Shown one piece after another: positions 13,378 to 42,959 of a stretch of 43,376 bases of DNA. The stretch is taken from positions 1-43,376 of the IMG/VR virus record IMGVR_UViG_3300029309_000086. One strand, written 5' to 3'. Under the pieces are notes generated by a model, which saw nothing but the letters and a program-made list of their open reading frames with translations, was not told where the DNA came from and did not search any database. Position 1 is the stretch's first letter, and the number at the start of each line of letters is the position of its first letter. A program made the translations under genes and the position numbers. Source of the DNA: a virus.

Positions 13378-13431
13378 ATGGAAGTAGATGACCCACATGA
13401 TGACTGCTCACATTGGATAGGAAAGATATGA
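13378..13431 (+). CDS. 17-residue leader peptide coupled to integrase
   Basis: MEVDDPHDDCSHWIGKI, preceded by a perfect AGGAGG at ideal spacing. Its stop overlaps the integrase ATG (ATGA). The strong ribosome site and coupling make it a probable translated leader whose translation controls integrase production. The peptide itself has Asp/His/Cys residues and no known family. Confidence 0.6.
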   Translation: MEVDDPHDDCSHWIGKI

Positions 13432-14312
13432 AATTTAATAAAGCAGTAGACAATTATCTCCACACTCGTCAGTTCAACTCTCTCTCTAGTTCCTCCCAAA
13501 AGAACTACGAGTCGTGTCTACTAGCTTTCTGTCGTATGTCTGTTATGGGAAGGAAGCTAGGCAACATTCAGCTAGACAAACTGAGTGTAGCTATGTGTTC
13601 TGAGATATACGATACTTGGGAGCTGGAAACATCCACTGCAAATGCGAACCATAACGCAAGGGTGTTTTCAGTTCTCATAAATTATCTTATCGCAATGGAG
13701 ATAATGATACTCAATCCAATGTCTAGAGTTAAGAAACGCCACAGTGAACCACGTTCTGTCGTATGGACACATGATCAAGTACTATCATTCCTCGACATAG
13801 CATTCACAAAGTTTGAGTGGCGTAACATCGGACTGATTGTCTTGATGTGCTATGAGTGGGGTCAACGTCCAATAGATATTCGTAATCTAACTTGGGATGA
13901 CGTTGACCTTGATGGGGAGGTTGTAAAAATAAAACAGACTAAACGTGGAGCTGAGGTAGAATTACCAATACCACCTAACTTAGTAGCTATGCTCACTGAG
14001 CAAAAAGGTGACTGGGACTTTCAAGAATATGTAGTACCTCACCACAGACCACACGGTAGCGCATACAGACCGCTAACAGTTTACCAGATGACATCCCTAC
14101 TGGCAGCAGTTAAAGCTCTTGCAGGGCTTCCTGACGAGCTGAGAGTAGGTGATCTGCGTAAGACTGCGATTGTACAAATGATTGAGAGTGGAGTCGATCA
14201 TCTGGCAATACAATCTGTGTCTGGTCATAAGAACGTGACCAGTCTAAATCCATATAATAAATTTAGTTTAAAAACCGCAAAGTCTGCATTGGAGAGGAGA
14301 CAAAGAGAATGA
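13428..14312 (+). CDS. int: Tyrosine recombinase (phage integrase)
   Basis: 294 residues starting at ATG 13428 (overlaps the leader stop; AGGA upstream). N-terminal SAM-like core-binding domain (about 1-100, KAVDNYLHTRQFNSLSSSSQ), then the catalytic domain. Active-site residues: Arg147 (GQRPIDIR), Lys172 (QTKRG), Arg244 (GDLRKTA), His267 (SGHKNV) and nucleophile Tyr276 (NPYNKF), nine residues after the His. The first His of the usual H-x-x-R box is Gly241. It would integrate the phage at an att site or resolve genome multimers. No excisionase or CI-type repressor is visible in this window. Confidence 0.93.
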   Translation: MKFNKAVDNYLHTRQFNSLSSSSQKNYESCLLAFCRMSVMGRKLGNIQLDKLSVAMCSEIYDTWELETSTANANHNARVFSVLINYLIAMEIMILNPMSRVKKRHSEPRSVVWTHDQVLSFLDIAFTKFEWRNIGLIVLMCYEWGQRPIDIRNLTWDDVDLDGEVVKIKQTKRGAEVELPIPPNLVAMLTEQKGDWDFQEYVVPHHRPHGSAYRPLTVYQMTSLLAAVKALAGLPDELRVGDLRKTAIVQMIESGVDHLAIQSVSGHKNVTSLNPYNKFSLKTAKSALERRQRE

Positions 14313-15102: not shown

Positions 15103-15305
15103 AGGGAAAGACACCTAGTGAGTTAGCAGAGATAGAAGCTAAGAAAACGTTTGAAGGTTTTATCAAATGGTGCAAGACATCTTTCTATTGGATCATGGCA
15201 ATACTAGTTATACTAGCATGGTGTAACTTTGGCACTGATACTGAGACTGGTAGCCAATATAACGGTGAGGTATATGCACCGATGAACATGGGAATGAACA
15301 AATGA
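15099..15305 (+). CDS. Small single-pass membrane protein
   Basis: 68 residues, GTG start at 15099 overlapping the previous stop, with GGAG upstream. One membrane helix at about 29-43 (FYWIMAILVILAWCNF). Cytoplasmic N-terminus is charged (SELAEIEAKKTFEGF). It precedes the SleB hydrolase with an ATGA overlap, so it may assist in export of or regulate that enzyme. Confidence 0.7.
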   Translation: MKGKTPSELAEIEAKKTFEGFIKWCKTSFYWIMAILVILAWCNFGTDTETGSQYNGEVYAPMNMGMNK

Positions 15306-15700
15306 TTGCTGAGATGCTTACATGCATTGCACTCAACGTTTACTACGAGGCACGTAGTGAGCCATTGGAAGGACAGTATGCAGTGGCTCATGTTGTGCTT
15401 AATCGTGTGGCTGATGATAAGTTTCCTAATGATGCGTGTAAGGTGGTGTATCAAGGTTTAGAGAAAGGTAAAGGTAAATGCCAGTTTAGTTGGTACTGTG
15501 ATGGTAAATCAGATACACCAAGAGAAAGACGAGCATGGTTAGACTCTCAGCTTGTGGCACACAAAGTGGTGTATGGGCATGTTAAAGATAATACTTATGG
15601 GTCTGTCTATTATCATGCTAATTATGTTAAACCTTTTTGGAGTAAGCATTACAAACATACTGTGACTTTAGGGTCACATATATTTTATAAAGGAGATTAG
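15302..15700 (+). CDS. SleB-type cell wall hydrolase (Hydrolase_2)
   Basis: 132 residues, essentially one SleB/CwlJ domain. Diagnostic blocks: LNVYYEARSEPLEGQYAVAH (11-30; Glu16 is the expected catalytic acid), VVLNRV, CQFSWYCDG, and the C-terminal YHANYVKPFW and LGSHIFY. The family are peptidoglycan lytic transglycosylases/amidases. It is encoded on the early strand, far from the late M15 endolysin, so it may be a second lysis enzyme or act in entry or wall remodelling. ATGA overlap with the membrane gene before it. Confidence 0.9.
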   Translation: MIAEMLTCIALNVYYEARSEPLEGQYAVAHVVLNRVADDKFPNDACKVVYQGLEKGKGKCQFSWYCDGKSDTPRERRAWLDSQLVAHKVVYGHVKDNTYGSVYYHANYVKPFWSKHYKHTVTLGSHIFYKGD

Positions 15701-15703
15701 TCA

Positions 15704-16051
15704 GTGAGTAACAAGTGGAATTATATCGGCAGAAATTCTAAAGGAGAGGCTAAATTTAAAAAGTATACTGGAGAAACACTAGAGTTTGTAAAAGACTGTT
15801 TAGACTCAAAAGGTATTGCTTACTTTGTACATGAAGCACAAAACTTAATTTTTATCTATAAAGAAAAAGAACCCGAAAGTAGATATAGCAGTCGGTACTC
15901 TTATTACTACACAACAGGTAGATGGGGAAATGATAAACGTAGAAAACATTATCACTGCGATGGCATAGAGCAATTTTTATCTAAGTACTACCAAACAGCA
16001 GAAGAAGAAAAGAAATACTGGGATTCTATAAGAGAAAAGGAAACAGAGTGA
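15704..16051 (+). CDS. Hypothetical protein, Tyr-rich
   Basis: 115 residues with a GTG start behind AAGGAG. Alpha/beta N-terminus (KYTGETLEFVKDCLDSKGIA), then a Tyr/Ser/Arg-rich stretch (SRYSSRYSYYYTTGRWGNDK at about 63-82) and helical C-terminus. No recognised family. GTGA overlap with thyX. Confidence 0.7.
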   Translation: MSNKWNYIGRNSKGEAKFKKYTGETLEFVKDCLDSKGIAYFVHEAQNLIFIYKEKEPESRYSSRYSYYYTTGRWGNDKRRKHYHCDGIEQFLSKYYQTAEEEKKYWDSIREKETE

Positions 16052-16734
16052 TTGAAGTAACATACATTGACCACATGGGTAGTGACTTATCTGTAATCAA
16101 TGCGGCTAGAGTTAGTTTTGGTAAAAGATCTAATTGGTTGCCAAGAGTTCACAATGGTGAACAGTTAGTTTTGACAGCTAAAGATGCCAAGTTAATTAAT
16201 TATCTAGCTAGGCATCACCACAAGTCACCATTCAATCATGCCTTTGCTACGTTTCATGTCAAAGCTCCTATCTTTGTAGCACGTCAGCTACAGAAGCATG
16301 AGTACATGCCTTGGAATGAGATTAGCCGTAGATATGTAGATGAAGATCCTGAGTATTACAAACCCAAAGTTTGGAGAAGACGTTCAAAGGATAAGAAGCA
16401 AGGTAGTGGTAAAAATTTTAGAGGCTGGGTAGGTATGCACGAATCTGATAAACCAGAGCAAAAACATCTCGAATCTATATTGGCATCTAATATGGCATAT
16501 AAAATATTGATAAACTATGGTATTGCACCAGAGCAAGCACGTATGGTATTGCCACAGTCCATGATGACTGAGTGGTATTGGTCAGGATCACTATATGCAT
16601 TTGCAAAGATGTGTGGACTACGACTAAAACCTGATACTCAGTATGAGACTAGGATTGTGGCAGAACAAATAGAAGATAAGATGACGGAGTTATTTCCTGA
16701 GTCATGGACAGCATTAAGAGCGTATGCAGAATGA
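16048..16734 (+). CDS. thyX: FAD-dependent thymidylate synthase
   Basis: 228 residues, GTG start overlapping the previous stop. ThyX methylates dUMP to dTMP using methylene-tetrahydrofolate, FAD and NADPH. The signature corresponding to RHRxxSxNExSxRY reads KHEYMPWNEISRRY (83-96): first Arg to Lys, third Arg to Glu, Ser to Pro, while NE-x-S-x-RY is intact. Other supports: HHHKSPFNHAFATFHVKAPI (56-75) and QARMVLPQSMMTEWYW. A basic insertion (WRRRSKDKKQGSGKNFRGW) is common in phage forms. It supplies dTMP together with NrdJ and MazG downstream. Confidence 0.95.
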   Translation: MIEVTYIDHMGSDLSVINAARVSFGKRSNWLPRVHNGEQLVLTAKDAKLINYLARHHHKSPFNHAFATFHVKAPIFVARQLQKHEYMPWNEISRRYVDEDPEYYKPKVWRRRSKDKKQGSGKNFRGWVGMHESDKPEQKHLESILASNMAYKILINYGIAPEQARMVLPQSMMTEWYWSGSLYAFAKMCGLRLKPDTQYETRIVAEQIEDKMTELFPESWTALRAYAE

Positions 16735-17048: not shown

Positions 17049-17288
17049 ATGAGTGATCAGTGGGAAAGAGATTCTTGGGATAGATGTTGTCAAGAATACT
17101 TTCCAAGTAACCCACATACAAAAGATGTGTTTATGGCGTTTCGTTACTTAAGTGAAAAGTTTTCTAGTGAAGAACCACAAGAATGGCACATTGATCGCAG
17201 AAAGGGTATATCAAAAGAGATACGCCCTATGACTAAAGAAGAACGTGAGAGAGCCAAGGAACGAGAGGAGGCTAATAATGGCGAGTAA
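17049..17288 (+). CDS. Small charged protein before primase-helicase
   Basis: 79 residues behind AAGGAGG. MSDQWERDSWDRCCQEYFPS at the start; very charged C-terminus (MTKEERERAKEREEANNGE). Overlaps the primase-helicase start by 11 bases, so probably coupled. Unknown. Confidence 0.7.
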   Translation: MSDQWERDSWDRCCQEYFPSNPHTKDVFMAFRYLSEKFSSEEPQEWHIDRRKGISKEIRPMTKEERERAKEREEANNGE

Positions 17289-18891
17289 TGATAATCCACA
17301 TCTGGCATGTCCGTATGTAGACTGTGGATCAAGTGATGCCTTTAACTGGAATGATGATGGCTTTGGTCACTGTCACTCCTGTTCAAGAGCATACCCATCG
17401 AAAGATATGCCACAGGTATTCGATTGGGTAAAGAGTGAGTATCCATTAAAGGAGAGGAGAAACCCTATGGATATAAAAATTGCGTCACAGACGCATGAAG
17501 GTATACGTGGACTAGAAGCTGATGTTGCTGAACTGTATGGCATTGCCTTGCAGATTGGTGATGATGGTAGACCAGTCAGGTATGCTTATAAATACCCACA
17601 CACAGTCAAGTACCGATTGGTAGATGACAAGTCCAAGTCTTGGACAAAAGATCGTGGCATGGGTATGAACCATCTGTTTGGTCCTGAGTTTAACGCAGGG
17701 ACAAGCCAACGCATCTATATCACTGAGGGTGAGTTTGATGCTGCATCACTGTATCAGATACTTGGTAAGAGCTTTCCTGTAAAGTCTCTACCATCTGCTA
17801 GCATTGGTGAAAAATTTATTAAACACAATTACCTTTATCTGTCGTCATTTAAAGAAATAGTTTATGCAGGTGAATTAGATCCTGCAGGACGTAGAGCCGC
17901 AGATAAATTATACCAAGCCTTTCCAGATAAGTTCTGGTATGTGCCTATGTCTAAGCACAAGGATGCTAATGATTTCTTACAGGCAGGTGATGGTAAAGAC
18001 TTGATGTGGGCAGCTAAGAAGCCTCAAAGGTACAGCCCTGAGAACTTCTTCTGTTCTCGTGATGACTTCTCTCTTGCCTTGCGTAACGAGAATCCATACG
18101 AGTATGTATCAACTGGTCATGCAGGACTTGATGAAAAGATCCGTGGTATGGTCAAGGGCGGCTTGACTTTTATCAAAGCACCTCGTGGTACTGGTAAGAC
18201 TGAGGTGATAAGATACTTCGAGACTGGTCTATTATCTAATGATGGTGTTAAGATAGCCTTACTACATATGGAGGAGATGAAGTCTACAACTCTTCGAGCT
18301 ATGGCTACCTACCATCTTGGTAGTAATGTAAGAACGCATGAAGATGCTGACCGTAATGGATACAGTCTTGAGCAAGTAGAAGAAGCAGCAAACAAGATTG
18401 CCGACTCAGAGAACAACAGAACTATTATCTTTGAGATGCAGTCTCATGATGATCCTCTGAGCTTGTTAGACTATACCCGAATGGCTGTTACGTCCTTTGG
18501 TGCAGACTACGTCTTTGTTGATCACGTCCAACGCCTAGCCTATCTATCTAACAGTGGTGTTGACGGTGCTACCAGTACACTGACTACACTTGGCTCACGC
18601 ATGGCACAACTAGCCAAAGAGCTAAACATAGGTGTGGTATTTATATCGCAGGTTAATGATGATGGTAGAACAAAGTATGCAGCCTCTCTTGAAGAAGAAG
18701 CAATAATATGTATAAAGATCGAAAGGGATGTAGAATCAGAAGATGAGATACTGCAGAATACAACTGAGTTTATAGTTGATAAGAACCGACCCTTTGCTAA
18801 ACTTGGCAGAGCAGGTTCAGTCTACTACGACCCAGAGACTACGATCTTATCTGAAGAGATCCCATACGAAAGGAGTGATATGGCAGCATGA
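17278..18891 (+). CDS. T7 gp4-like DNA primase-helicase
   Basis: 537 residues from ATG 17278 (GAGAGGAGG upstream). Domains in order: zinc-binding domain (Cys11, Cys16, Cys32, Cys35 in CPYVDCGSS...GHCHSC); TOPRIM primase core with TEGEFDAA (149-156, Glu150) and GELDPAG (198-204; Glu-x-Asp instead of Asp-x-Asp); RecA-like DnaB-type helicase with Walker A APRGTGKT (301-308), FVDHVQR (Walker B region) and FISQVNDDGRT. It unwinds DNA and makes primers for the polymerase next door. An internal ATG at 17467 (codon 64) with a perfect SD would give a form without the zinc domain, as in T7 gp4B. ATGA overlap with the polymerase. Confidence 0.95.
   Translation: MASNDNPHLACPYVDCGSSDAFNWNDDGFGHCHSCSRAYPSKDMPQVFDWVKSEYPLKERRNPMDIKIASQTHEGIRGLEADVAELYGIALQIGDDGRPVRYAYKYPHTVKYRLVDDKSKSWTKDRGMGMNHLFGPEFNAGTSQRIYITEGEFDAASLYQILGKSFPVKSLPSASIGEKFIKHNYLYLSSFKEIVYAGELDPAGRRAADKLYQAFPDKFWYVPMSKHKDANDFLQAGDGKDLMWAAKKPQRYSPENFFCSRDDFSLALRNENPYEYVSTGHAGLDEKIRGMVKGGLTFIKAPRGTGKTEVIRYFETGLLSNDGVKIALLHMEEMKSTTLRAMATYHLGSNVRTHEDADRNGYSLEQVEEAANKIADSENNRTIIFEMQSHDDPLSLLDYTRMAVTSFGADYVFVDHVQRLAYLSNSGVDGATSTLTTLGSRMAQLAKELNIGVVFISQVNDDGRTKYAASLEEEAIICIKIERDVESEDEILQNTTEFIVDKNRPFAKLGRAGSVYYDPETTILSEEIPYERSDMAA
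17451..17469 (+). promoter_or_regulatory. Internal ribosome site and start within primase-helicase
   Basis: GGAGAGGAG (17451-17459), seven bases before an in-frame ATG (17467). This would start a product of 474 residues that lacks the zinc-binding domain but keeps TOPRIM and helicase. T7 gene 4 is known to make exactly such a pair (4A and 4B). Confidence 0.65.
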
Positions 18892-22849: not shown

Positions 22850-23195
22850 AACTGATATAGAAGCTTTTAAATATTATAACTCTCAGGATATGGATGATTA
22901 TCAAAAGAATGCTGCTGAAACTGCTATCTACAGCAGTAAACATGCTGTTATTTATCCTGCACTTGGGTTAGCTGCAGAAGCAGGTGAAGTTGCAAACAAA
23001 GTGAAAAAGATCTTACGTGATGGTGACTTTGATCGTAAAGCTATAGCTGATGAGATTGGAGATTGTCTGTGGTACATTGCCGCATTGTGTAGAGATCTAA
23101 ATGTTAGTATGAATGATGTAGCTAAAACTAATCTTCATAAGCTACAAGATAGACAAAAACGTGGTGTAATATCTGGATCAGGAGACAACAGATGA
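22839..23195 (+). CDS. mazG: MazG-family nucleotide pyrophosphohydrolase
   Basis: 118 residues with a GTG start. MazG features: YPALGLAAEAGEVANKVKKI (E-x-x-E metal motif, about 45-64) and IADEIGDCLWYIAALCRDLN (E-x-x-D). The C-terminal ...NLHKLQDRQKRGV...GSGD is typical of phage MazG. It hydrolyses (d)NTPs and has been proposed to lower ppGpp or remove modified dNTPs. It sits between nucleases and the reductase and overlaps nrdJ by ATGA. Confidence 0.9.
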   Translation: MINETDIEAFKYYNSQDMDDYQKNAAETAIYSSKHAVIYPALGLAAEAGEVANKVKKILRDGDFDRKAIADEIGDCLWYIAALCRDLNVSMNDVAKTNLHKLQDRQKRGVISGSGDNR

Positions 23196-25093
23196 ATAAC
23201 TATTTACCAACCGATTACCAAGCCTTTATACACACCTCAAGATATGCTCGTTGGCTTGAGAATGAAGGAAGACGTGAGTCTTGGTCAGAAACAGTAGACC
23301 GTTACATGGGTAACGTTGTGGGCTACGACATAGACCATGACACTTATAATGAAATAAGAGCTTCCATACTGGCATTAGAAGTTATGCCTTCGATGCGAGC
23401 CATGATGACTGCAGGTCCAGCTTTAGAAAGAGATAATACGGCAGGGTATAACTGTAGTTATTTACCCGTAGATGATCCAAAGTCCTTTGATGAGGCTATG
23501 TTTATTCTGCTCTGTGGTACTGGTGTCGGCTTCAGTGTCGAACGTCAGTTCATCTCTAAGCTCCCAGAGGTTCCAGAACTCTTCGAGAGTGATACTACCA
23601 TTGTGGTAAAGGACAGTAAGGAAGGCTGGGCTAAGGCGTTTAGACAATTGCTAGCTCTTCTTTGGGCAGGTGAGATCTCCAAGTGGGATGTCTCTAAAGT
23701 TCGTCCTGCAGGTGCAAGACTTAAAACCTTTGGTGGTAGAGCATCTGGCCCTGCACCACTGGTTGACTTATTCAACTTTGCGGTAAATATATTTAAGGAG
23801 GCACAAGGACGTAGGCTATCATCAATTGAGTGTCACGATTTGATGTGTAAGATTGGTGAGGTTGTAGTAGTAGGTGGTGTTCGAAGATCTGCAATGATAA
23901 GTTTATCTAATTTGTCAGATGACAGAATGCGTCATGCTAAGTCAGGTAACTGGTGGGACAACAATCCACAAAGAGCTTTAGCAAACAACTCTGTTTCTTA
24001 TACAGAGAAACCAGATAGTATATCATTCATGCGAGAGTGGTTAGCACTAGTAGAATCAGGAAGTGGAGAACGAGGTGTATTTAATAGAGAAGCATCTAAA
24101 AAACAAGCTGCAAAAAATAATAGACGTGATCCTGACTTTGAGTTTGGCACCAATCCGTGCAGTGAGATTATTCTTAGACCTTATCAATTCTGTAATCTTA
24201 CAGAGGTTGTTGTACGAGCCACTGACACGATTGAAGACTTGGAGCGAAAGGTCAGATGTGCCACAATACTTGGGACGATCCAAAGCACATTCACAAAGTT
24301 CCCATATCTGCGAAAGGTGTGGCAGCGAAATACCGAAGAAGAGCGACTGCTCGGTGTGTCTCTCACAGGGATAATGGATAACCAACTACTTACAATTAAA
24401 AACAAAGGATTGGAGAGTACTCTTGAACATTTACGAGAAGTTGCTATTTCTACTAATACTGATTGGGCTAACCGCCTTGGCATTACACCAAGCGCAGCAA
24501 TTACGTGTGTCAAACCATCAGGAACAGTATCACAATTGGTTGACTCTGCCTCTGGAATCCACGCACGTCACTCACATCATTACATTAGAACCGTTAGAGG
24601 AGATAACAAAGATCCACTTACGCAGTTTATGAAAGATCAAGGCATCCCTAATGAAGCTGACTTCATGAAGCCAGATCAAACAACTGTGTTTTCATTTCCA
24701 GTTAAAGCTCCTCAAGGAGCAATAGTCACTGACAATGTCTCAGCTATCCAACAATTAAAAACTTGGTTAGTCTATCAAAGACATTGGTGTGAACATAAAC
24801 CTAGTGTAACAATTAACGTAAGAAAGGATGAATGGTTTGAAGTAGGTGCATTTGTTTACGAGCATTTTGATGAAATGTCTGGAGTAAGTTTCTTACCTTA
24901 CAACGAACATACTTATCAGCAAGCTCCATATCAGAGTTGCACAAAAGACGATTATAAAAAATTATCTAAAGTTATGCCTAAAAGTATTGACTGGGCAAAG
25001 CTTTCAGAGTATGAAAAAGAAGACACTACTGCTAGCAGTCAAACTTTTGCTTGTACTGGTGACGTTTGTGAAATCGTAGATATAGGAGCATAG
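23192..25093 (+). CDS. nrdJ: Class II (adenosylcobalamin-dependent) ribonucleotide reductase
   Basis: 633 residues, monomeric NrdJ type. Cys88 (GYNCSYLP) and Cys334 (FCNLTE) are the redox pair, Cys323 (TNPCSEI) the thiyl radical, with Asn321 and Glu325. C-terminal shuttle pair Cys621/Cys626 (CTGDVCE). The spacings 323-334 and 621-626 equal those of the Lactobacillus leichmannii enzyme (408-419, 731-736). It reduces ribonucleotides to deoxyribonucleotides and needs host B12. ATGA overlap with mazG; supplies dNTPs for replication. Confidence 0.96.
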   Translation: MNNYLPTDYQAFIHTSRYARWLENEGRRESWSETVDRYMGNVVGYDIDHDTYNEIRASILALEVMPSMRAMMTAGPALERDNTAGYNCSYLPVDDPKSFDEAMFILLCGTGVGFSVERQFISKLPEVPELFESDTTIVVKDSKEGWAKAFRQLLALLWAGEISKWDVSKVRPAGARLKTFGGRASGPAPLVDLFNFAVNIFKEAQGRRLSSIECHDLMCKIGEVVVVGGVRRSAMISLSNLSDDRMRHAKSGNWWDNNPQRALANNSVSYTEKPDSISFMREWLALVESGSGERGVFNREASKKQAAKNNRRDPDFEFGTNPCSEIILRPYQFCNLTEVVVRATDTIEDLERKVRCATILGTIQSTFTKFPYLRKVWQRNTEEERLLGVSLTGIMDNQLLTIKNKGLESTLEHLREVAISTNTDWANRLGITPSAAITCVKPSGTVSQLVDSASGIHARHSHHYIRTVRGDNKDPLTQFMKDQGIPNEADFMKPDQTTVFSFPVKAPQGAIVTDNVSAIQQLKTWLVYQRHWCEHKPSVTINVRKDEWFEVGAFVYEHFDEMSGVSFLPYNEHTYQQAPYQSCTKDDYKKLSKVMPKSIDWAKLSEYEKEDTTASSQTFACTGDVCEIVDIGA

Positions 25094-26195: not shown

Positions 26196-26225
26196 AAGAG
26201 GGGGCATAAAGCCCCCTTTTGTTTT
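26196..26225. terminator. Bidirectional terminator between convergent operons
   Basis: AAGAGGGGGC-ATAAA-GCCCCCTTTT: a six-pair GC stem extended by A-T pairs, with A-run on one side and T-run on the other, so it can stop transcription from both directions. Confidence 0.9.
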
Positions 26226-29200
26226 AGTCGTAGATTAAATCTAAATTGTCTATTAGGTAAAGTAAGTATTTCATCTTAACTTCACCACCCTCCATATTTT
26301 TTAAGTCAGTAATCTCACCCTCATATCCTACCGCTTTCATTGCCTGTTTAACATGATCTTTCTTTGCTTTTAAAAGTTTATCTTCTAGCAGCATTATTTC
26401 ATCACTTTTTTTGCTACTAGACATAAGTATTTCTTTTGCTAATCTTTTTACTTTCTTTTTAACTAAACCAAACCTTTCTTTTCTACTACCTAAATCTAAC
26501 TCTAAGTAGCCATTCTCAATCTCTTTAGCTGCTTCTATATTAAATATTTCCTGCACTAGGTCATCTAGTCTGTTTCTTAGTTCAGGCTCGCCTTTAAAAT
26601 CCATAGCTTGCCAAGCTTGCAACCCAACAGAACCTGCCAGTCTTTCAGAAGGAGATGGCCCTCTGTCACCTCTGGCTCCACCTGCAACACGACCAAAATC
26701 ATAATTAACTTTATCTCTAGTTGCTATCATACGTTCAGGTCTATTATCAGGTATGCCGATCATTCCAGGAATATCTTCTACATACTTAAATATTCTATTT
26801 AGTTCTTCATTACCTTGTCTTCTATCAGGTGTTACAAAGTCTCCTGTAATAAGAGATGCAACTTCGTTTGCAGGTTCTAAAAACCTCAACCCTCCAGATG
26901 CAATTCTAGACATTGCAGCAGCAGCTAGGTCAAGACTTTCCCAACCTCTGTCTGTCATGGTAGTGCCTTCCCCTATCATAGCTAAAGCATAATCTTTCAT
27001 TGTAGTGTATGCTTCACCAGTTCCCCTAAATGTTTGACCAATAAATAATTCAAAAGCTTGTTCTGATAATTTTACAGGTATTTCTCCGTCAACTCTGTGA
27101 TGCGCCCACATCTGAGCAACCATTCTTGTATAGTTTTGAGGTGCATCGTATGTATAATCTCTACGAGATCCATCAGGAAGAAACTCAAAGTTCCAAGTTT
27201 CTCCATTTCTAACTCTTTCTTCAGCTTTTTCTAACTCTGATTTTGAACCATTAATACCTGGTGCTATTCTCAATGCTCCTAGTCCAACTAAAGCCTTTAT
27301 TGTTAATTCATGCATTTCTTCATCATAGAATACATCTTTTACATCTTGTTTACTTCTTGCACCTTTCATAGTACCTGCAAAATGCTTAATAGCATTAAAG
27401 CCACTATAATCACCTGCCATAGCCGTAACTGTGTTAAAGAATCTCCCAAATGGAATTAAGAAACCACCTCCTGCAGAGTTTGAAAACCTTTCAACATTTT
27501 TTGCTACTTGTAAAAATACTCCGTCACCTTTTTTACCTAACCAAGAAAAAGAATAAGTTTCTTTTTTAGCTCTAGTAATAGCAGGTTCTTGTACTTTTTC
27601 TAAAAACTCAGCACTATACATTTTTGTAAATGCATCATCTCTTTCCATAAACTCGTTAAAACTTTGACCATAAACCTTTCTTATGTTTTGATCCATAGCA
27701 CTCATAAACGAAATCATTTTAGTGACTTCGTCCTGTAGTTTTACACCTGCCATCGCCTGAATAGTGCTTACAGCTTTTTCACTAGCTTTATTTATTTTTG
27801 AATTAGGGTCAAGATTATTTCTTGCTAACAAGTCTTTAGTTTCTACACCACCAGATATTTCAGATAAAAGATCTTCACCAACTTCAGGTTTAAACTCTAA
27901 AAATTTCATACCCTGATCAGCAGTGGCATTAAAATCAAGTACGTTATATCCACGTCTTGCAGCACCCAGTATTGTACCCATACCTTTTTTGTAGTTAAAA
28001 GGTAATGTCACAGCCCCTAACACTACATCCGATATACTATTTAAACTTGTAGTATAAGCCCAACCTTTTATGTTAAGTCCTGTTGTGCTTGGGTGAGATG
28101 TTAGCAATCGTTTCCATACTGACTGTATGTATCTAACTCTATCGCCTGTACTTGCTATTGCAGCCTCTTCTTCTTTGGTAAAAGTTTTATGTAAATTGAC
28201 CATGTCATCAAGGGTCATATTATTAATATCTTTATTTAATAAATCTTGTGCAACTTTCCTATTGTTTAATATTTTACCTGCAAAACTAGAACGGCCTTTA
28301 AACCACAAAGATAAATCTTCTGCAGTTTTTATTTTACCAAGCTCTGAACTTCTTTTAATACCTAAATTCTTTTTAGCACCTGCAAGCATTTTATCTACAG
28401 TTTTTTGAGGCAGTGCTGCAATTGCATCACCAATAAAGTTTGAAACGTTATCATCTTTTCCTCTAGGTATATACACAAATCCTGACTCTGCTAAAGAAAA
28501 CATTAAACCTTTTTGTTTTAAATCTTCTGTAGGTTTACCAAACAACAATATAGATTCAAATAAATGTTCAGCCTCACTTGAGTTAGCCTTTACCTCTTTT
28601 GCAGTAAGTGCTTTATCAGCTATATTTGCATTTGCTCTAGCCTTTGTCCAAGGCAGATAGCTATCCATGTTTTTATCAAAGTCTTCAAACAATTTATTAA
28701 TTGTTTTGCCAACTCTACTCATGTCTGTTTTTGAAACAACTTCTTGGGTTATTTCTTCAGCACTTTTACCACCAAACTTAGACATAACATCTGTGTAGGT
28801 TTGAAAACCTAGAGACTTTTCAAATCCTTTTTTAGCTGCTTTTGTACCTGCAAAGATACTAGGTATTACTATCACACCTAATGCAGCCCCTACAGACTGA
28901 GGTAAACTTCTTTCGTCTTGTACACCACTACCAATTCTTAGGCCTTGATATAGTTGATCTGTACCTACAGCAACTGCCATATCAGTAGTTGTACCTGCTA
29001 TTATTTCAGGTAGTCTTTGTTTAATACCTGCATTTAAGAAACCTTTTTTAATTACCTTATCTTTGGCTTCTTTAGCTTGTTTCTTAGTCATACCCCTTTT
29101 TAAAGCTTCTTTAGCAACACCTTTTGCACTTTTTCTAAGTCCATAACCTGCAGTCTTCATAGAAGCTTTACTAAATAGACGACCAACACCAAGACCTAAA

Positions 29201-29754
29201 AGAGTAGTTGGGTCCCAAACACCTGCTTTAAAATAATCTCTTACACCATCAAGGGTTTCACCCCAAGTTACATTATCATCAAAGATGTCAGGCATCTTAT
29301 CCATAATCTCAAAGGATGCACCTAGTAATGCTCTTTGAGTATCGTCAGCTCTGGCAAACCAAGCAACATCATTACCTGTTGTAACTGTTTGACCACCTGC
29401 AAGTGATCTCATCCAGTTTTGCCACTCTTGCACTAACTCTTCATCAGAAATATCACGATCATATTTTTCATCAAAACTAAAATTGTTACGAGTCTCTTCA
29501 CTGTAGCGAGACTTCATTATTTCACGAATACCCTCTATTAGTGTTTCATTTTCTAATATGTCTCGTTCAGTTAGCTCACCCTGCTCTATAGTGTTTAGTT
29601 CTTCTATAATTGAACTAGAGCCATTATAAGCTCTTACTGGCATAGACGGTTCTGTTGGTTGACTATCAGGAGACCAATTATCATCAAAAATACTAACAGT
29701 ATTTTCTTCAGTTTTAGTAGGTTCCCAATTGTCATCAAATATTGATTCTGCCAT
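26224..29754 (-). CDS. Large internal virion-like protein, 1176 aa
   Basis: Start at ATG 29754, overlapping the upstream stop (TGATG). The N-terminus has two copies of a short motif, SIFDDNWEP and SIFDDNWSP (about 4-12, 21-29). The rest is long, largely helical, with Ala/Gly-rich segments (GLGVGRLFSKASMKTAGYGL; QSVGAALGVIVIPSIFAGT) that could cross a membrane. No enzymatic domain recognised. Size, late position and helical character resemble the ejected core proteins of podoviruses (T7 gp16-like). The repeated DDNW motif might be a docking peptide. Confidence 0.75.
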   Translation of the reverse strand: MAESIFDDNWEPTKTEENTVSIFDDNWSPDSQPTEPSMPVRAYNGSSSIIEELNTIEQGELTERDILENETLIEGIREIMKSRYSEETRNNFSFDEKYDRDISDEELVQEWQNWMRSLAGGQTVTTGNDVAWFARADDTQRALLGASFEIMDKMPDIFDDNVTWGETLDGVRDYFKAGVWDPTTLLGLGVGRLFSKASMKTAGYGLRKSAKGVAKEALKRGMTKKQAKEAKDKVIKKGFLNAGIKQRLPEIIAGTTTDMAVAVGTDQLYQGLRIGSGVQDERSLPQSVGAALGVIVIPSIFAGTKAAKKGFEKSLGFQTYTDVMSKFGGKSAEEITQEVVSKTDMSRVGKTINKLFEDFDKNMDSYLPWTKARANANIADKALTAKEVKANSSEAEHLFESILLFGKPTEDLKQKGLMFSLAESGFVYIPRGKDDNVSNFIGDAIAALPQKTVDKMLAGAKKNLGIKRSSELGKIKTAEDLSLWFKGRSSFAGKILNNRKVAQDLLNKDINNMTLDDMVNLHKTFTKEEEAAIASTGDRVRYIQSVWKRLLTSHPSTTGLNIKGWAYTTSLNSISDVVLGAVTLPFNYKKGMGTILGAARRGYNVLDFNATADQGMKFLEFKPEVGEDLLSEISGGVETKDLLARNNLDPNSKINKASEKAVSTIQAMAGVKLQDEVTKMISFMSAMDQNIRKVYGQSFNEFMERDDAFTKMYSAEFLEKVQEPAITRAKKETYSFSWLGKKGDGVFLQVAKNVERFSNSAGGGFLIPFGRFFNTVTAMAGDYSGFNAIKHFAGTMKGARSKQDVKDVFYDEEMHELTIKALVGLGALRIAPGINGSKSELEKAEERVRNGETWNFEFLPDGSRRDYTYDAPQNYTRMVAQMWAHHRVDGEIPVKLSEQAFELFIGQTFRGTGEAYTTMKDYALAMIGEGTTMTDRGWESLDLAAAAMSRIASGGLRFLEPANEVASLITGDFVTPDRRQGNEELNRIFKYVEDIPGMIGIPDNRPERMIATRDKVNYDFGRVAGGARGDRGPSPSERLAGSVGLQAWQAMDFKGEPELRNRLDDLVQEIFNIEAAKEIENGYLELDLGSRKERFGLVKKKVKRLAKEILMSSSKKSDEIMLLEDKLLKAKKDHVKQAMKAVGYEGEITDLKNMEGGEVKMKYLLYLIDNLDLIYD

Positions 29755-30725
29755 CAATCACCTGTAGCTCTTAATATATCTTCTTGGGTTACTGTATATG
29801 AACCATTTTGAAAAAGTATTGAAGTACCCTCTACAATTAATCCCACATTAATAGCTTGAGCTAACTTATCTTTACTTTCAAAATTTAAATTTCTGTTTAT
29901 TAGATAAGCATAAGATTTAAAATTAGGATTAGTTTTCATAATATTTATTGCTATATTTACAGCTTCATTACCAGCTAATTGAATTGCAGATGACGTTTGA
30001 CCTGCTTTTAATTTTTTTCTTGCGGCATCTAAATTAACAATACGTTCTGCATCTCCAGGTTCAGCAGTATCAGTATTAGCTCTATTATTTAATTGACCTA
30101 TCGTTGCAGCTAAGTTATCATCTAACTGATCTATATAAAGATCTTTTATACCTGTTTGCTCTGCTGCAGATAATAAATCACCAGTTGGTGCAAAACTAAA
30201 TGTAGCACCCACAACTTCACTAGGAGTTGTAAGATCTTTTATGGCATCTCTAAAAGTAACATTAGGTCTAATTTCTTCGTCTAACATATCCTCGGTTAAA
30301 CCAAGTGTTGTCATAATTTGATCTGAATCTAAAGTAGGTCCAACCTCTTCTACAACTCTGTGAAAACTTATAACATCTTCTTCTGCTTCTTGAGCTGTAT
30401 AAGGTATATTATGTTTTAAATGATATTCGTATAAAGCATCTTGACCCGAAGCAAACTTCTTTAGCGTTTCTAAAGAAGCTCCTGCAAGCTGCGGAACTAT
30501 CTGACTGTCTTCGGGAAGTCTTGATTTGATTTGAGACATAATAGCAGCTTTGTCTGCTAAATCTTGACCAGAACTACCACTAGTTCCAGACCTAGATCTA
30601 GAACGACCTCCACCATATGCAAGATCAAGCTCCATCATTTTAACTGCCATGTCTTGCCTACGTTCTGTCTCTTTATCAACAGAATCAACCCAGTCCTGTA
30701 CACCCCTAAAACTAAATTTAACCAT
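29754..30725 (-). CDS. Virion-associated hypothetical protein, 323 aa
   Basis: 323 residues, soluble. An N-terminal helix (VQDWVDSVDKETERRQDMAV), a Gly/Ser/Arg-rich linker (GGGRSRSRSGTSGSSG at about 38-53), then a mostly helical body. Acidic. It lies between two other putative internal proteins and overlaps the 1176-residue gene by TGATG. Probably part of the ejectosome or tail; no family recognised. Confidence 0.75.
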   Translation of the reverse strand: MVKFSFRGVQDWVDSVDKETERRQDMAVKMMELDLAYGGGRSRSRSGTSGSSGQDLADKAAIMSQIKSRLPEDSQIVPQLAGASLETLKKFASGQDALYEYHLKHNIPYTAQEAEEDVISFHRVVEEVGPTLDSDQIMTTLGLTEDMLDEEIRPNVTFRDAIKDLTTPSEVVGATFSFAPTGDLLSAAEQTGIKDLYIDQLDDNLAATIGQLNNRANTDTAEPGDAERIVNLDAARKKLKAGQTSSAIQLAGNEAVNIAINIMKTNPNFKSYAYLINRNLNFESKDKLAQAINVGLIVEGTSILFQNGSYTVTQEDILRATGD

Positions 30726-30728
30726 GAG

Positions 30729-31229
30729 TTACATCCTTGCCATTAGACCAGGTTTAACTGGATCTTCTTCTTTTTTCTCCATAGCAACTTCAAATTCTTT
30801 TTCTTTAGGTGCCTCTCTAACTACTTCAGACTTTTCTAACATCTTTTTAGCCTTTTGTACATCTCTTCTATACGACAATCTACGTTTATCTCTTTCGTCA
30901 TCAAAGCCTTCTTCATAGTCAATACCTGCTTCATCAGCATAGCCTTTTATAAACTCGTGTATAATAGGAGCAATAATAAGACTTGTGTCAATTGTGTGAA
31001 TACCTTCCATGACAGCACTTCTTAATATACCTTCAACTAATGTAACTAAGTCTAAACCAAATTCAAGAAAGTGTAATGCATCCTCCATTGCACCTTCCTC
31101 TAAAAGATTTTCTAAGTGTAGATCTAAAGCCTCAATAGGATCTGTTACCTCTGGAGGTCTTTCATAAGGTTGACTTTTAGGTTCTGTGGTTAAAGACTGG
31201 CCTGGAATTGGCCTTTCAAACATTTTCAT
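30729..31229 (-). CDS. Virion-associated protein, PIPGQSLT family
   Basis: 166 residues from ATG 31229, chosen for its ATGA overlap with the upstream stop and GGAG at seven bases; the longer reading uses TTG. MFERPIPGQSLTTEPKSQPY and YERPPEVTDPIEALDLHLEN, then a hydrophobic helix region (GLDLVTLVEGILRSAVMEGI) and IIAPIIHEFIKGYADEAGID. I recall this protein in marine phages beside internal virion genes. C-terminus charged. Role unknown. Confidence 0.8.
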   Translation of the reverse strand: MKMFERPIPGQSLTTEPKSQPYERPPEVTDPIEALDLHLENLLEEGAMEDALHFLEFGLDLVTLVEGILRSAVMEGIHTIDTSLIIAPIIHEFIKGYADEAGIDYEEGFDDERDKRRLSYRRDVQKAKKMLEKSEVVREAPKEKEFEVAMEKKEEDPVKPGLMARM

Positions 31230-31981
31230 TCTTGTCTCCAATTATCTACAACTATTGCTCCGTCTAAGCCATCTCTAGATTTTACCCCTGCAGATTTTCT
31301 ACCTTTCCAAGGACTCCAACCTTTTTCAACAGCTTTGTCCAGTGAAAATTGTATCTGCATTCTTACACCTTCTACGGTATTATCAGTTTTAAGAGTTCTT
31401 CCTGTAGCTTCTTCATACTCATTACCTAATCCACCGCCTGTGTATAACTGAAATGGACCATAAGAGGCTTCAGTACCCCCTTCCATTTTTTGTTTACCTT
31501 CAGATATTTGAGATTGATAGTTATGAAGTCCTTCGGCTTTATATATTTTAATAGCTACATCGGGATCAATATTACGAAGTTTTGATTCTTCTTTAATTAT
31601 ACTTTCTATTTTCTTTTGTGTCAACTTAGAAGAGTAGCCTTTAGCAATATAACCTTTTTCTGCAAGGTCTTTATCTTCTTTAGTTATATGAGCTTGATCC
31701 CCTGCTTCTGCTTTTGGAGAAACATCTATAGACCCATCTTCATCCTCTCTTTCTTGTCTCCTTTGCATATGCATTTCTTGTACCATTCTCATACTTCCAA
31801 GAAGTTTTCCATCTAAAACTTGACTAGGAGTTTCTGCAATATCAGTTTTAATTCTCTCTAAAAAAGGTATATTATCTTCATTTCTATTTTGCGCAAATGT
31901 TTTATACATACTAGCACCACCCCTTTGAGCAGCTTCTACCATTTGCATATGCCTTGACTTATTCATTATACCAGTTGTCAT
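31226..31981 (-). CDS. Lytic transglycosylase/lysozyme-like virion protein
   Basis: 251 residues. The N-terminal 120 residues are polar and helical. The C-terminal domain has KIYKAEGLHNYQ (Glu150) and GGTEASYGPFQLYTGGGLGN (Glu171 onwards), with a GWSPWKG element and helices matching SLT/lysozyme-type muramidases (E...ES-x-G-x-FQ). It would locally open peptidoglycan during DNA entry. Catalytic Glu is probably 150 or 171. GGTAAAGGG precedes the ATG. Confidence 0.75.
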   Translation of the reverse strand: MTTGIMNKSRHMQMVEAAQRGGASMYKTFAQNRNEDNIPFLERIKTDIAETPSQVLDGKLLGSMRMVQEMHMQRRQEREDEDGSIDVSPKAEAGDQAHITKEDKDLAEKGYIAKGYSSKLTQKKIESIIKEESKLRNIDPDVAIKIYKAEGLHNYQSQISEGKQKMEGGTEASYGPFQLYTGGGLGNEYEEATGRTLKTDNTVEGVRMQIQFSLDKAVEKGWSPWKGRKSAGVKSRDGLDGAIVVDNWRQE

Positions 31982-31996
31982 ATTATTACCCTTTAC

Positions 31997-34900
31997 CTAT
32001 AAAATACCGCTTAATAAGCCTTTAGCACCAGTACCAAATAAGAATCTAAACATTAATGAAGTACCTGCAGCATTTTCTTCTGCCTCTAGTTGTTCTCTAA
32101 CAGCATCTAGTTTCTTATCTCCTAGAACTATTTGTAAGGCTCTATCCATAGCAGACTCACTGGAAGTAAATGCATAGCTCATCATGTCTCTTTCTCTCTG
32201 CCATATTTCATCTAGATTTTTAGCAGACAAGGCATTAGCAGTTTTTGCATATTCCATAAAAGCTTCATTTTGTGCGGCTGTATTAAGAGTTGCTAAGTTT
32301 TGTCTCCACTGAGCATTAGCCTGTGCTATCACTAAACCATTTTGTGCATTAAACATATCTCTTTGATTTTGTGTTTCAGCATTAAATTGTCTCATTGCAT
32401 TAGTAGTATTAATATTAAACTGATCCATAGCATTTGCTTGAGATGCATTATACTGAGATACTTGAGAACTTAAATTAGCAAAGAACTGATTAGTTTGATT
32501 TTCACTTGATGCATTAAATTGTTCTGCAGCATTTTCTGCAGCTTGGTCTGTAAGAAGTGCTTGCACATTTGTTTGAGCTTTAAACATCTCAGTTTGTTGA
32601 GTGTTCGACAAGTTAGCCATATCCATTTGCAAAAAGTTTTGAGCTTGTTGTACAGCAGCCTGTTGTCTATTACTTAAGTTAGCAACATCTAATTGAGATA
32701 GTGCTGCAGCTTGAGCCATAGTCATAGCTTGTTTATTATTTAAGTTAGCAAGATTAACAGTGTTTACTGCACGAGAATTTTCTAATGCTATCTGTTGGTC
32801 AGCAGTAAAATTCATATTAGCAATATCACCTAGCTTTGCAGCATTTTGTACTCTTGCTTGAAATGTTTGATCAAACTCTTGTCCTATAAACTGAGCACGT
32901 TGCTGTGCTGCAAGCATAGCACGTTGTTGTCTATTAGACAAGTTCTGTGCTTCAAAACTAGCCATAACATTTGCATCAGCTTGTGCAATAGGAAGTGCTG
33001 CTTCCATAGCTGCTTGTACTATAGCTTGACCTGCCATTGAAGAAGCACCAAGACCACGAGCAGACATTTCCATAGTTGCCATACGCATAGCACCTGAAGC
33101 CCAAGAAGGTACATTACCACCCTCAAAACCTCTCATAAGGTTTTCTAGCTGTCCCTGTATTGTAGCTTCTTTTGTAGGAGTAGCTTCTACTTTTTCTATA
33201 GCTTCTGAAAAGGCAGCAGCTTTTTGTGCATCAGCAGCACCACTAATTATTTCACTAGCTCCTGTTACAGGATCTATTTGTATAGCTCTTTGTACAGGAT
33301 TAGTTAGTTTATAAGTAGCACCTTTAGCAGCTTCTACCCCTTCAGCAGTAGCCTGTGCTGATGTTTTATTACCTATTAGAGAGGTTGTTTCTTGAGCTGC
33401 TACAGGTTTTGCACCACCACTTAACTCTGAGTCTGTATAGTTAAGCTTATTTAACTCAGTTAAAATATCAGGTTGAGCAGTTTGTGCGTTCATGTCTACA
33501 GAAGACATAGTTTGAGGCATACCTGATTGTGCAACTGTACCTGCTGTAGCTGCATTAGCCATATTAGCAACAGGTACAGTTTGACCTGCAGTAGAACCTA
33601 TCATATCTGCAGCTTGAGGTTGTATAGCAGCAAATTGTGGAGCTTGCACAGGAGTCATAGTACTTGCAACAAGATTTTGCTGCATATTTTGAAAATCCTC
33701 TAAAGATGTACCTGTTGTACCAGTATTAGAACCAACTCTATTATGAGCCATACCTGCCATAGTTTTTTGATATTGGCGCATTTTAGCTGCTGCATTTGGA
33801 TTAGAACCTAAAAAACCTGTTAGTTCTGAATCACCACCAGTAAAACCTAAAAATTTTCTAGCAAGCTGTACATCTGGACTGCTATTACCATCAGTCATTA
33901 CTCCACCTTGTGCAGCCGCAGTATAACCATAGGGAACTGGAGTCATCGGATTACCACTAGCATCAACTGTAACCATCATTGTTTGACCAAGATTATTTTT
34001 ATATTGTTTTTGCCCACCAAATCCACTTTGAGATTGTGAAGTAAGGTTGCCCATATTTGTACCAGTGTAGTCATTCATTGTTGTAACTTGATTAGGTAAA
34101 CCAGAAATACCTGCAGATTGTAAATTAGTGTTTATTGTTCCAGGTACATTTGATTGCGGATAAGTAGTAGTAGCAGCACTACCTAAATTTGAAAGGTTAG
34201 TTGTAGTAGTACCTGTGTTACCTACAGCAGTATTGTTGTTATTGTAAGTAACTGCAGGTGTTCCTGTAGCTGTATTACCTACAGCAACATTAGCTTGATC
34301 AAGATTTGTACCTGTATTTTGGGTGCTACTAGCACCTGTATTATCTTTATTAGGGTCTATAGTCTGTTCTACAACTTGAGTACTACCTGTTGTTTTTTCT
34401 CCAGTTAAACCTGATACTACTTTAAAAGGGTCAATAAAAGGTGCTACTCCTGATATTAAACCCTCCATATCAAACATATCCATATAATCCCCAAAAGGAT
34501 TATACATCTGTTTTAATTGATCAAAAGTATTTACATATTGATCTTTATTAGAAAAAGATCCCATTGCTGTAACAGCATCATCAATCCATGCGGTATTTTT
34601 TACACCAAATTTTTGTAGGGTATAAGCCATGCTGTCAAGATTAGTACCTAAACTTGTCAAAATAGTGCCATTACCACCAACAACATATAAAGCAGGTGGT
34701 AATTTTTCATCGGTAGTATTACCAAATTGATCTGTTACCCAACCACCTGATTGAAATTTTACAGTAGTGCCACCATACATCTGTGATGTAGCAATTTGAG
34801 CAGCAATTACAGGATTATCTGAACCCATAATAGCTTCCCAATTACGTGTATCAGTATTAGAACCTACAACACCGTATAATAAATCACTACTTAACCTTGA

Positions 34901-35482
34901 AATTTTTGTCCACTCGGAAGACTCCATAGTACCATACAGTTGTTCAATAGGAACACCTGCAATCATTTCCATCATTTCACGATTGTTAGGTTTACGAGGA
35001 TTACCTGTTTTGGCAGAACTAACATAGCTACTTAAATAGTCATTATCAACCCATGCAGGTACTTCTATACCGTCTACAACACGTCCTTCTTCTTGCCCAA
35101 CATACTGGGCATACTCTTGATTAAGTTCTATATTTGTTGCCATACCTGTATGATTACTAGTGGCAACTGTAGAACTATTTGTAGTGTTATTATTGTTACT
35201 TAATGCACCAAACTGTTCTTCACCACCACTTGTATTATAATGGTGTAAAGCAGAGTCATAGTCATTAAAAGTAGAATCCCCTACTTTATAATACGTAGTA
35301 ATACCATCAGATGTTGGACCTGTTAACTCTTCAATACCTGCAGTAGTAGGTGCAGAACTACCAGTTCCTGTATCATCTGCCATTTGTTGAGCAATTTCTC
35401 TAGCTCTTGCTAAAGCCGTTTCTCTTACAGTTGACCCTAAAGAACTTCCTTCTGGAGCATTTGGATTATTATCTTGTGCCAT
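31997..35482 (-). CDS. Very large repetitive virion protein, 1161 aa
   Basis: 1161 residues. Residues 1-400: mixed with Thr/Asn/Gly-rich tracts (NTGTTTTNLSNLG and similar). The C-terminal third (about 790-1060) consists of long helices made of repeats centred on ANLSNRQQ-x-A-x-x-x-AQ and FNA-x-x-x-NQ-x-x-FNAQ, with almost no charge, a Gln/Asn/Ala coiled-coil-like rod. The extreme C-terminus is hydrophobic (LMFRFLFGTGAKGLLSGIL). Probably an ejected core or tail-tube protein. Low complexity makes homology hard to judge. Confidence 0.75.
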   Translation of the reverse strand: MAQDNNPNAPEGSSLGSTVRETALARAREIAQQMADDTGTGSSAPTTAGIEELTGPTSDGITTYYKVGDSTFNDYDSALHHYNTSGGEEQFGALSNNNNTTNSSTVATSNHTGMATNIELNQEYAQYVGQEEGRVVDGIEVPAWVDNDYLSSYVSSAKTGNPRKPNNREMMEMIAGVPIEQLYGTMESSEWTKISRLSSDLLYGVVGSNTDTRNWEAIMGSDNPVIAAQIATSQMYGGTTVKFQSGGWVTDQFGNTTDEKLPPALYVVGGNGTILTSLGTNLDSMAYTLQKFGVKNTAWIDDAVTAMGSFSNKDQYVNTFDQLKQMYNPFGDYMDMFDMEGLISGVAPFIDPFKVVSGLTGEKTTGSTQVVEQTIDPNKDNTGASSTQNTGTNLDQANVAVGNTATGTPAVTYNNNNTAVGNTGTTTTNLSNLGSAATTTYPQSNVPGTINTNLQSAGISGLPNQVTTMNDYTGTNMGNLTSQSQSGFGGQKQYKNNLGQTMMVTVDASGNPMTPVPYGYTAAAQGGVMTDGNSSPDVQLARKFLGFTGGDSELTGFLGSNPNAAAKMRQYQKTMAGMAHNRVGSNTGTTGTSLEDFQNMQQNLVASTMTPVQAPQFAAIQPQAADMIGSTAGQTVPVANMANAATAGTVAQSGMPQTMSSVDMNAQTAQPDILTELNKLNYTDSELSGGAKPVAAQETTSLIGNKTSAQATAEGVEAAKGATYKLTNPVQRAIQIDPVTGASEIISGAADAQKAAAFSEAIEKVEATPTKEATIQGQLENLMRGFEGGNVPSWASGAMRMATMEMSARGLGASSMAGQAIVQAAMEAALPIAQADANVMASFEAQNLSNRQQRAMLAAQQRAQFIGQEFDQTFQARVQNAAKLGDIANMNFTADQQIALENSRAVNTVNLANLNNKQAMTMAQAAALSQLDVANLSNRQQAAVQQAQNFLQMDMANLSNTQQTEMFKAQTNVQALLTDQAAENAAEQFNASSENQTNQFFANLSSQVSQYNASQANAMDQFNINTTNAMRQFNAETQNQRDMFNAQNGLVIAQANAQWRQNLATLNTAAQNEAFMEYAKTANALSAKNLDEIWQRERDMMSYAFTSSESAMDRALQIVLGDKKLDAVREQLEAEENAAGTSLMFRFLFGTGAKGLLSGIL

Positions 35483-35492
35483 ACTTTATTCC

Positions 35493-35747
35493 TTACTTTC
35501 CCATTGTCATCCACACTGCACCTGCAATAAATGTCAGCAATGCGACAGTGGTTAATTTAACTACAGTTGACCAGAATGATTTACGTGTGTCACGCCATGC
35601 CTCTAGCAAACTTCTCATTTCTATAATATCTTTTTGTGCGTCATCATCAAGTAATCCGATAGACCGTAGTGCCTCTTTAGCTCCACGTCTAGCTGCTTTG
35701 TCTAGCATCTCTTCTATTTGTTCTATTGTAAGGGTGATGTTGTTCAT
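35493..35747 (-). CDS. Small membrane protein, DUF6127-like
   Basis: 84 residues: helical N-terminus (IEQIEEMLDKAARRGAKEAL, IGLLDDDAQKDIIEMRSLLE), then one membrane helix (about 62-80, VVKLTTVALLTFIAGAVWM). I recall this architecture as DUF6127 in phages and alphaproteobacteria; some sit near lysis genes as holin candidates. Overlaps the fibre gene by TAATG. Function unknown. Confidence 0.7.
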   Translation of the reverse strand: MNNITLTIEQIEEMLDKAARRGAKEALRSIGLLDDDAQKDIIEMRSLLEAWRDTRKSFWSTVVKLTTVALLTFIAGAVWMTMGK

Positions 35748-37882: not shown

Positions 37883-37907
37883 ATTGTCTATCCTTTACTT
37901 TAACTTA

Positions 37908-39383: not shown

Positions 39384-39385
39384 AG

Positions 39386-40843: not shown

Positions 40844-40848
40844 TATTT

Positions 40849-41112
40849 TTAGTCTCCATCATCCTCAGAAGGGTCTACCCAATCAGGATTAGCTGACCAG
40901 GTTGTGCCATCTAACTTATACTTGTTGCCCACCCAATCGCTTGGTGCGTTGGTTACGTTCTCTGTAATAGTCGTGTTGCCACTGTTGAGATCAGCGATAA
41001 TAAACTGAGCAGGATCTCCTACTGTAATATTATCTGACGTTGCTGTAATTTTTACGTCATCTGCAAGTAAATACTTACATAACTTAGTTGATGTTTCCAC
41101 GATAGTTTTCAT
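40849..41112 (-). CDS. Small protein between propeller adhesins
   Basis: 87 residues, MKTIVETSTKLCKYLLADDV; beta-rich middle (ITATSDNITVGDPAQFIIAD) and acidic C-terminus with PDWVDPSEDDGD. Possibly a small tail or adhesin-chaperone protein. I recall similar genes among marine phage tail genes. Unknown. Confidence 0.7.
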   Translation of the reverse strand: MKTIVETSTKLCKYLLADDVKITATSDNITVGDPAQFIIADLNSGNTTITENVTNAPSDWVGNKYKLDGTTWSANPDWVDPSEDDGD

Positions 41113-41115
41113 TCT

Positions 41116-42567: not shown

Positions 42568-42581
42568 TAAGCTACTTTCTA

Positions 42582-42944: not shown

Positions 42945-42959
42945 TAAAAAACTCCTTTA

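What the first reader, a model, noticed from the sequence alone, without database searches (positions are those of the whole stretch)
17451..18891. Internal start predicts gp4A/gp4B-like forms of the primase-helicase
A textbook SD (GGAGAGGAG, seven bases spacing) sits before an in-frame ATG at codon 64, just after the zinc domain. T7 gene 4 uses the same trick to make a helicase-only partner. Retention of this site in a distant phage suggests that mixed hexamers matter in general.
Basis: partly seen in the sequence, partly recalled or inferred. Interest (0 to 1): 0.62.

Follow-up and report, generated by a model that had tools for sequence, protein, structure and literature searches.

The report
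Second start inside phage helicase gene
In a marine phage, the gene for the combined DNA primase and helicase carries a second, evolutionarily protected start signal just after the zinc domain, so it very probably makes a long and a short protein as phage T7 does, but the signal seems to have arisen separately rather than been kept from a common ancestor with T7.

Summary
A Shine-Dalgarno (SD) sequence GGAGAGGAG (17451-17459), a 7-nt spacer and an in-frame ATG (17467, codon 64) lie in the linker between zinc ribbon and RNA-polymerase domain of a T7-gp4-type primase-helicase (17278-18891). In the window alone it is suggestive: one of 3 of 248 internal ATGs with so strong an SD, and the peptide alone would give an SD this strong in about 28% of codon draws. 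Comparative data make it convincing. All 47 representatives of the window's clade keep the ATG. Arg60 is AGG in 46/46 (clade AGG usage 22%), with zero synonymous changes where sixfold codons average 12. The sister group lacking the ATG reads CGT there. 'Retention from T7' is not supported. The nearest cultured relatives (CRP-9/CRP-13 type) and most intervening lineages lack the site. Parsimony needs 5-7 changes, against 13-21 losses under a single origin, and the SD sits in different codon phases and peptides (GG in T7, RR here, KE in Lau218). Best reading: a working 4A/4B-like dual start making 60- and 53-kDa proteins, independently acquired in at least three lineages. No protein data exist; whether mixed hexamers form is untested.

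The parts
17278..18891 (+). Full-length (4A-like) primase-helicase CDS, 537 aa, 60.4 kDa
   Evidence: Pfam Toprim_2 and DnaB_C; PHROG 239 primase/helicase E=4e-79; T7 gp4 structures by sequence and fold
17263..17271 (+). SD of the gene start (GAGAGGAGG, 6-nt spacer)
   Evidence: energy -12.0
17290..17394 (+). Zinc-ribbon domain (codons 5-39; Cys 11, 16, 32, 35)
   Evidence: Cys columns invariant in 46 aligned sequences including T7; model strands 5-39; dN/dS 0.07
17451..17459 (+). Internal SD GGAGAGGAG (core AGGAG 17455-17459 = Arg60 AGG + Arg61 AG)
17467..17469 (+). Internal in-frame start codon ATG, codon 64
   Evidence: Met in 47/47 clade representatives
17467..18891 (+). Predicted short (4B-like) product, 474 aa, 53.2 kDa: RNA-polymerase/TOPRIM and helicase domains without the zinc ribbon
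   Evidence: first RPD strand at residue 68
17049..17288 (+). Upstream ORF overlapping the gene start by 11 nt (possible translational coupling of the long form)
   Evidence: inference
18870..18890 (+). SD (AAGGAG 18870-18875) and ATG (18888-18890) of the downstream family A DNA polymerase, inside the 3' end of this gene; served as positive control for the codon test

Best explanation
The gene has two ribosome binding sites and makes two co-linear proteins: a 60-kDa primase-helicase with the zinc ribbon, and a 53-kDa form from codon 64 that lacks the zinc ribbon but keeps the whole helicase and the catalytic part of the primase. By analogy with T7, the short form would co-assemble with, or work beside, the long one so that not every subunit of the ring carries a zinc domain. 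The internal site arose in the ancestor of the window's clade, after it split from the CRP-9-type phages and the L236 group, and independently of the T7 and Lau218-type sites. Shown here: the site, its position at the domain boundary, its nucleotide-level conservation and its patchy distribution. Inferred: that ribosomes use it, the mixed hexamer, and independent gain rather than repeated loss.
For: All 47 representatives (95% nt) of the site clade keep ATG at codon 64; SD energy is -8.7 or stronger in 42, and 5 are moderate at about -6. Arg60 is AGG in 46/46 with 0 synonymous changes and Arg61 has 1; the other Arg columns have at least 3 and sixfold columns average 12.3 on the same tree. Zero-change codons also fall where the downstream polymerase SD/ATG overlaps the gene, a positive control. 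The sister group L236/239/241/256 lacks Met64 and reads CGT at the Arg. The peptide varies (KERR, PERR, PDRR, RERR, KERK) while AGG stays in all but L234. The only ATG within reach of the SD is the in-frame one. Codon 64 lies in the linker before the first RPD strand. T7 makes 63- and 56-kDa forms in equimolar amounts by starting at codon 64 (PMC9198812). Independent origin: tree, 13-21 losses needed otherwise, different SD codon phases, and a separate Lau218-type clade with variable linker but conserved SD+ATG.
Against: No ribosome profiling or proteomics. The predicted mRNA fold leaves most of the SD open but pairs the ATG (unpaired probability at most 0.1), which could dampen initiation. 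The purine-rich peptide raises the chance of an SD by itself (28%). Deep branches of the tree are long and the software warns about joined long branches, so the number of origins is uncertain. Some Cobavirus-type relatives have weak SD-like sites that could be remnants of an older site.
Confidence: 0.8

Rival explanations
1. The internal site is functional and homologous to that of T7: one ancestral dual start, lost many times.
For: Same linker location and the same codon number 64; T7-subfamily sites drift in exact position and codon while staying present, so phase differences alone do not exclude homology; weak sites exist in some intermediates; the L260 group uses the same AGG AGA Arg pair as the window.
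Against: Needs 13-21 losses against 5-7 changes in total. CRP-9-type linkers mostly have no start codon at all. The codon number depends on N-terminal length and is about 50 in Lau218, so the match at 64 is partly accidental.
Confidence: 0.15
2. The codons are conserved for the protein (a basic Arg-Arg linker) or as a ribosome-pausing sequence, and codon 64 is simply a methionine that is not used as a start.
For: The ERR(N/K)PM peptide is conserved in the clade; several other Met residues are also invariant; an SD of this strength is not rare given the peptide.
Against: Peptide constraint does not explain AGG in 46/46 with zero synonymous changes, the same signature as the overlapping polymerase start. 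A pausing role does not explain the invariant ATG 7 nt downstream. The group without ATG64 has CGT.
Confidence: 0.12
3. Codon 64 is the only start used and the zinc ribbon is not translated, as deposited annotations of some relatives imply.
For: In about 21 of 47 clade representatives the internal SD is predicted to be stronger than the SD at the gene start; CRP-9 and CRP-6 records begin near the linker.
Against: The zinc cysteines are invariant and the N-terminal 58 codons are under the same purifying selection as the rest (dN/dS 0.07). The window and its near relatives have a strong SD at the gene start.
Confidence: 0.03

Closest known systems
Bacteriophage T7 gene 4 (gp4A 63 kDa / gp4B 56 kDa)
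   Same: Same protein family and fold, SD + in-frame start in the linker between ZBD and RPD at codon 64 (PMC9198812), same expected products
   Different: About 22% protein identity. SD encoded by Gly-Gly codons in another codon phase. T7 also carries out-of-frame gene 4.1 there; among the phages compared, I know of proof of two forms only for T7
Citrobacter phage CR8 and T3 genes 4A/4B
   Same: Annotated dual start in a T7-type gene 4
   Different: T7 subfamily; CR8 has a weaker SD-like sequence
Lau218-type marine phages (Lauvirus and the L260/L366-L381 group)
   Same: Conserved AGGAG plus in-frame ATG in the linker, not annotated as a start in Lau218
   Different: Distant half of the tree, different linker length and mostly different peptide
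[quoted passage not shown]
   Same: Closest cultured relatives of the gene, 63-65% identity
   Different: No SD+ATG at the site; linker without the RR codons

Membership tests
T7 gp4-type primase-helicase | N-terminal C4 zinc ribbon | tested here: met
   C11, C16, C32, C35 invariant in 46 aligned sequences including T7
T7 gp4-type primase-helicase | TOPRIM primase core | tested here: met
   Pfam Toprim_2 E=2e-8; E150, E152 and D201 invariant in the alignment; the DxD-like motif reads GELD
T7 gp4-type primase-helicase | DnaB-like (SF4) helicase domain with Walker A | tested here: met
   Pfam DnaB_C E=1e-13; T7 gp4 structures best by fold, E=8e-26
T7 gp4-type primase-helicase | Hexameric ring, dTTPase, primer synthesis | not testable with these tools
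   needs biochemistry
gp4A/gp4B dual-start arrangement | SD plus in-frame start in the ZBD-RPD linker | tested here: met
gp4A/gp4B dual-start arrangement | Internal site under nucleotide-level selection | tested here: met
   Arg60 AGG 46/46, zero synonymous changes; positive control at the polymerase start
gp4A/gp4B dual-start arrangement | Two protein forms are made and assemble into mixed hexamers | not testable with these tools
   needs proteomics or ribosome profiling and biochemistry
T7 internal start site, as a homologous (inherited) feature | Common descent of the site with T7 | tested here: not met
   Patchy distribution, 13-21 losses required, different codon phases; deep branches are long, so this is parsimony evidence rather than proof

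The most novel reading that the evidence does not exclude
Phage primase-helicases have evolved a zinc-domain-less helicase form through an internal ribosome binding site at least three or four separate times (T7 subfamily, Lau218-type phages, the window's clade, perhaps single cobaviruses), and in part of the window's clade the internal site is the stronger one, so the short form would be the main product.
Probability: 0.45. Interest if true: 0.55.

Novelty: new member of a known kind. Interest (0 to 1): 0.45.

Why it matters
The T7 gp4A/gp4B pair is a textbook case, and a 2025 review still leaves open whether the two forms make mixed hexamers or separate assemblies (PMC12593628). Independent, selectively maintained copies of the arrangement in distant marine phages are evidence that the zinc-free form gives a real benefit, and the natural contrast between site-bearing and site-less close relatives (63-80% identity) gives a ready comparison to test what that benefit is.

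Tried and rejected
Out-of-frame use of the SD: no other ATG lies within reach. Rarity of the SD within the window as sole evidence: two other internal ATGs score as well or better, and the peptide makes an SD likely, so rarity alone was not relied on. One simple conservation measure also flagged codons 302-308 (Walker A), so that sliding-window rank alone was not used. L022's internal score was a pattern-match error (the correct value, -9.1, is); counts here use the corrected value. Literature searches for internal starts in other phage primase-helicases gave nothing relevant in the held library; the key T7 heterohexamer paper (Zhang 2012) is not held. Megablast of the structural half and PHROG scans of five structural proteins gave no match.

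Full report
WHAT IS THERE. The window is a 43,376-bp virus record. The gene at 17278-18891 (+) encodes a 537-aa T7-gp4-type primase-helicase (Pfam Toprim_2 and DnaB_C; PHROG 239; T7 gp4 structures are the best sequence and fold matches). Its own start is ATG 17278 with SD GAGAGGAGG. Inside it, GGAGAGGAG (17451-17459), seven bases and ATG 17467-17469 (codon 64) are present as reported. The AlphaFold2 model (mean pLDDT 87) has zinc-ribbon strands at residues 5-39, lower confidence around 51-70 and the first strand of the RNA-polymerase domain at 68, so a product starting at Met64 would lose exactly the zinc domain (474 aa, 53.2 kDa against 60.4 kDa).

IS IT MORE THAN CHANCE? In the window alone the evidence is moderate: 3 of 248 internal ATGs have an SD this strong, and random synonymous codons for the peptide KERRNP give an SD of at most -8.7 in 28% of draws. 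Homologues decide the matter. I collected 80 close relatives from IMG/VR, further sets seeded with CRP-9, L075, Lau218, ICBM2, T7 and L260, and 26 phage loci from GenBank. At 95% nucleotide identity the first collection gave 146 representatives. In the window's site clade all 47 representatives have ATG at the same codon; 42 have SD energies of -8.7 or stronger and 5 are near -6. Arg60 is AGG in 46 of 46 sequences with Arg there, although AGG makes up 22% of Arg codons in the clade (CGT 40%); Arg61 is AGA in 41 of 43. On a tree built without this region, Arg60 shows 0 synonymous changes and Arg61 shows 1; the other 19 Arg columns show 3 to 18, and sixfold-degenerate columns average 12.3. The same test picks out codons 533 and 537, where the SD and ATG of the downstream DNA polymerase overlap this gene: an internal positive control. 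The sister group (L236, L239, L241, L256) lacks Met64 and reads CGT at the Arg codon. Meanwhile the zinc domain is under the same purifying selection as the rest (dN/dS 0.07), so the long form is very probably also made.

RETAINED OR GAINED? The site is absent in CRP-9, CRP-13 and the CRP-9-type metagenomic relatives (41 representatives closest to CRP-9, most without any start codon in the linker), in T5S1, cyanophages, Pasto, P12053L, P-SCSP1i, Issaku and CHF17, and weak in most cobaviruses. It is present in most of the T7 subfamily, where its exact position and start codon (ATG or GTG) drift, and in the Lau218-type phages, where linker length and residues vary (RRNTM, RRHNM, RRHTM, RRQTM, KEKKM) but AGGAG plus ATG stays in nearly all; two near-identical contigs have AAGAGGG instead. 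On a 72-protein tree made without the linker, strong sites need 7 changes (5 if weak ones are left out), whereas a single ancestral origin needs 13-21 losses. The SD core is written as GGA GGT (Gly-Gly) in T7, AGG AGA (Arg-Arg) in the window and AAG GAG (Lys-Glu) in Lau218, in three different codon phases; L260 uses the Arg-Arg form too. I conclude that independent gain is more likely than retention, with the caution that deep branches are long and the tree was a quick search.

HOW IT PROBABLY WORKS. In T7, alternative initiation at codon 64 gives equimolar 63- and 56-kDa forms; the short one lacks the ZBD and primer synthesis but keeps full helicase activity (PMC9198812), and mixtures couple unwinding to synthesis better than the long form alone, while it is unresolved whether the forms share rings (PMC12593628). 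By analogy the phage here makes a long primase-helicase and a short, zinc-free helicase form. In the window the gene-start SD is the stronger (-12.0 against -9.1), but in about 21 of 47 clade representatives the internal one is predicted to be stronger (with L022 corrected), so the ratio of the forms may differ between relatives. Use of the site, the ratio and mixed hexamers are inferences.

VERDICT. It is a new member of a known kind, made more interesting by recurrent independent origin.

Noticed in passing
L081 (CRP-9 gp23), L083 (CRP-6 gp15), L362 (RHEph01 gp021): Deposited primase-helicase genes start at or near the linker and omit the zinc ribbon although an upstream in-frame start is open (CRP-9: AGGAGG before GTG). 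Probably truncated annotations; in RHEph01 the annotated start has AAGGA in front.
   Followed up: partly
17869-17889 (residues ~198-204): The TOPRIM DxD-like motif reads GELDPAG (ExD) in the window and GELD in the consensus of the 46-sequence alignment, against FDMDEAG in T7.
   Followed up: no
18181-18201 (codons 302-308, Walker A): Low synonymous variation across the clade, comparable with the internal start region; no explanation was sought.
   Followed up: no
18870-18891: DNA polymerase start (GCATGA overlap) and its SD lie inside the primase-helicase gene; the GGAG core is kept in nearly all relatives while the residue changes between Arg and Gly.
   Followed up: yes
L085, L087, L265, L286 (cobavirus linkers): A recurrent weak AAGGA about 10 nt before ATG or GTG in the linker; L284/L285 have a strong AAGGAGG before GTG. 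Possibly further, weaker internal starts.
   Followed up: partly
26224-43289 (- strand): Structural half has no megablast match to phage records and the five proteins scanned have no PHROG match; 39386-40843 has about 25% identity to Marine virus AG-345-O18 and Lentibacter phage ICBM2.
   Followed up: partly
13413-14312, 15302-15700, 16048-16734, 23192-25093: Integrase, endolysin, thyX and B12-dependent ribonucleotide reductase genes accompany the replication module.
   Followed up: no
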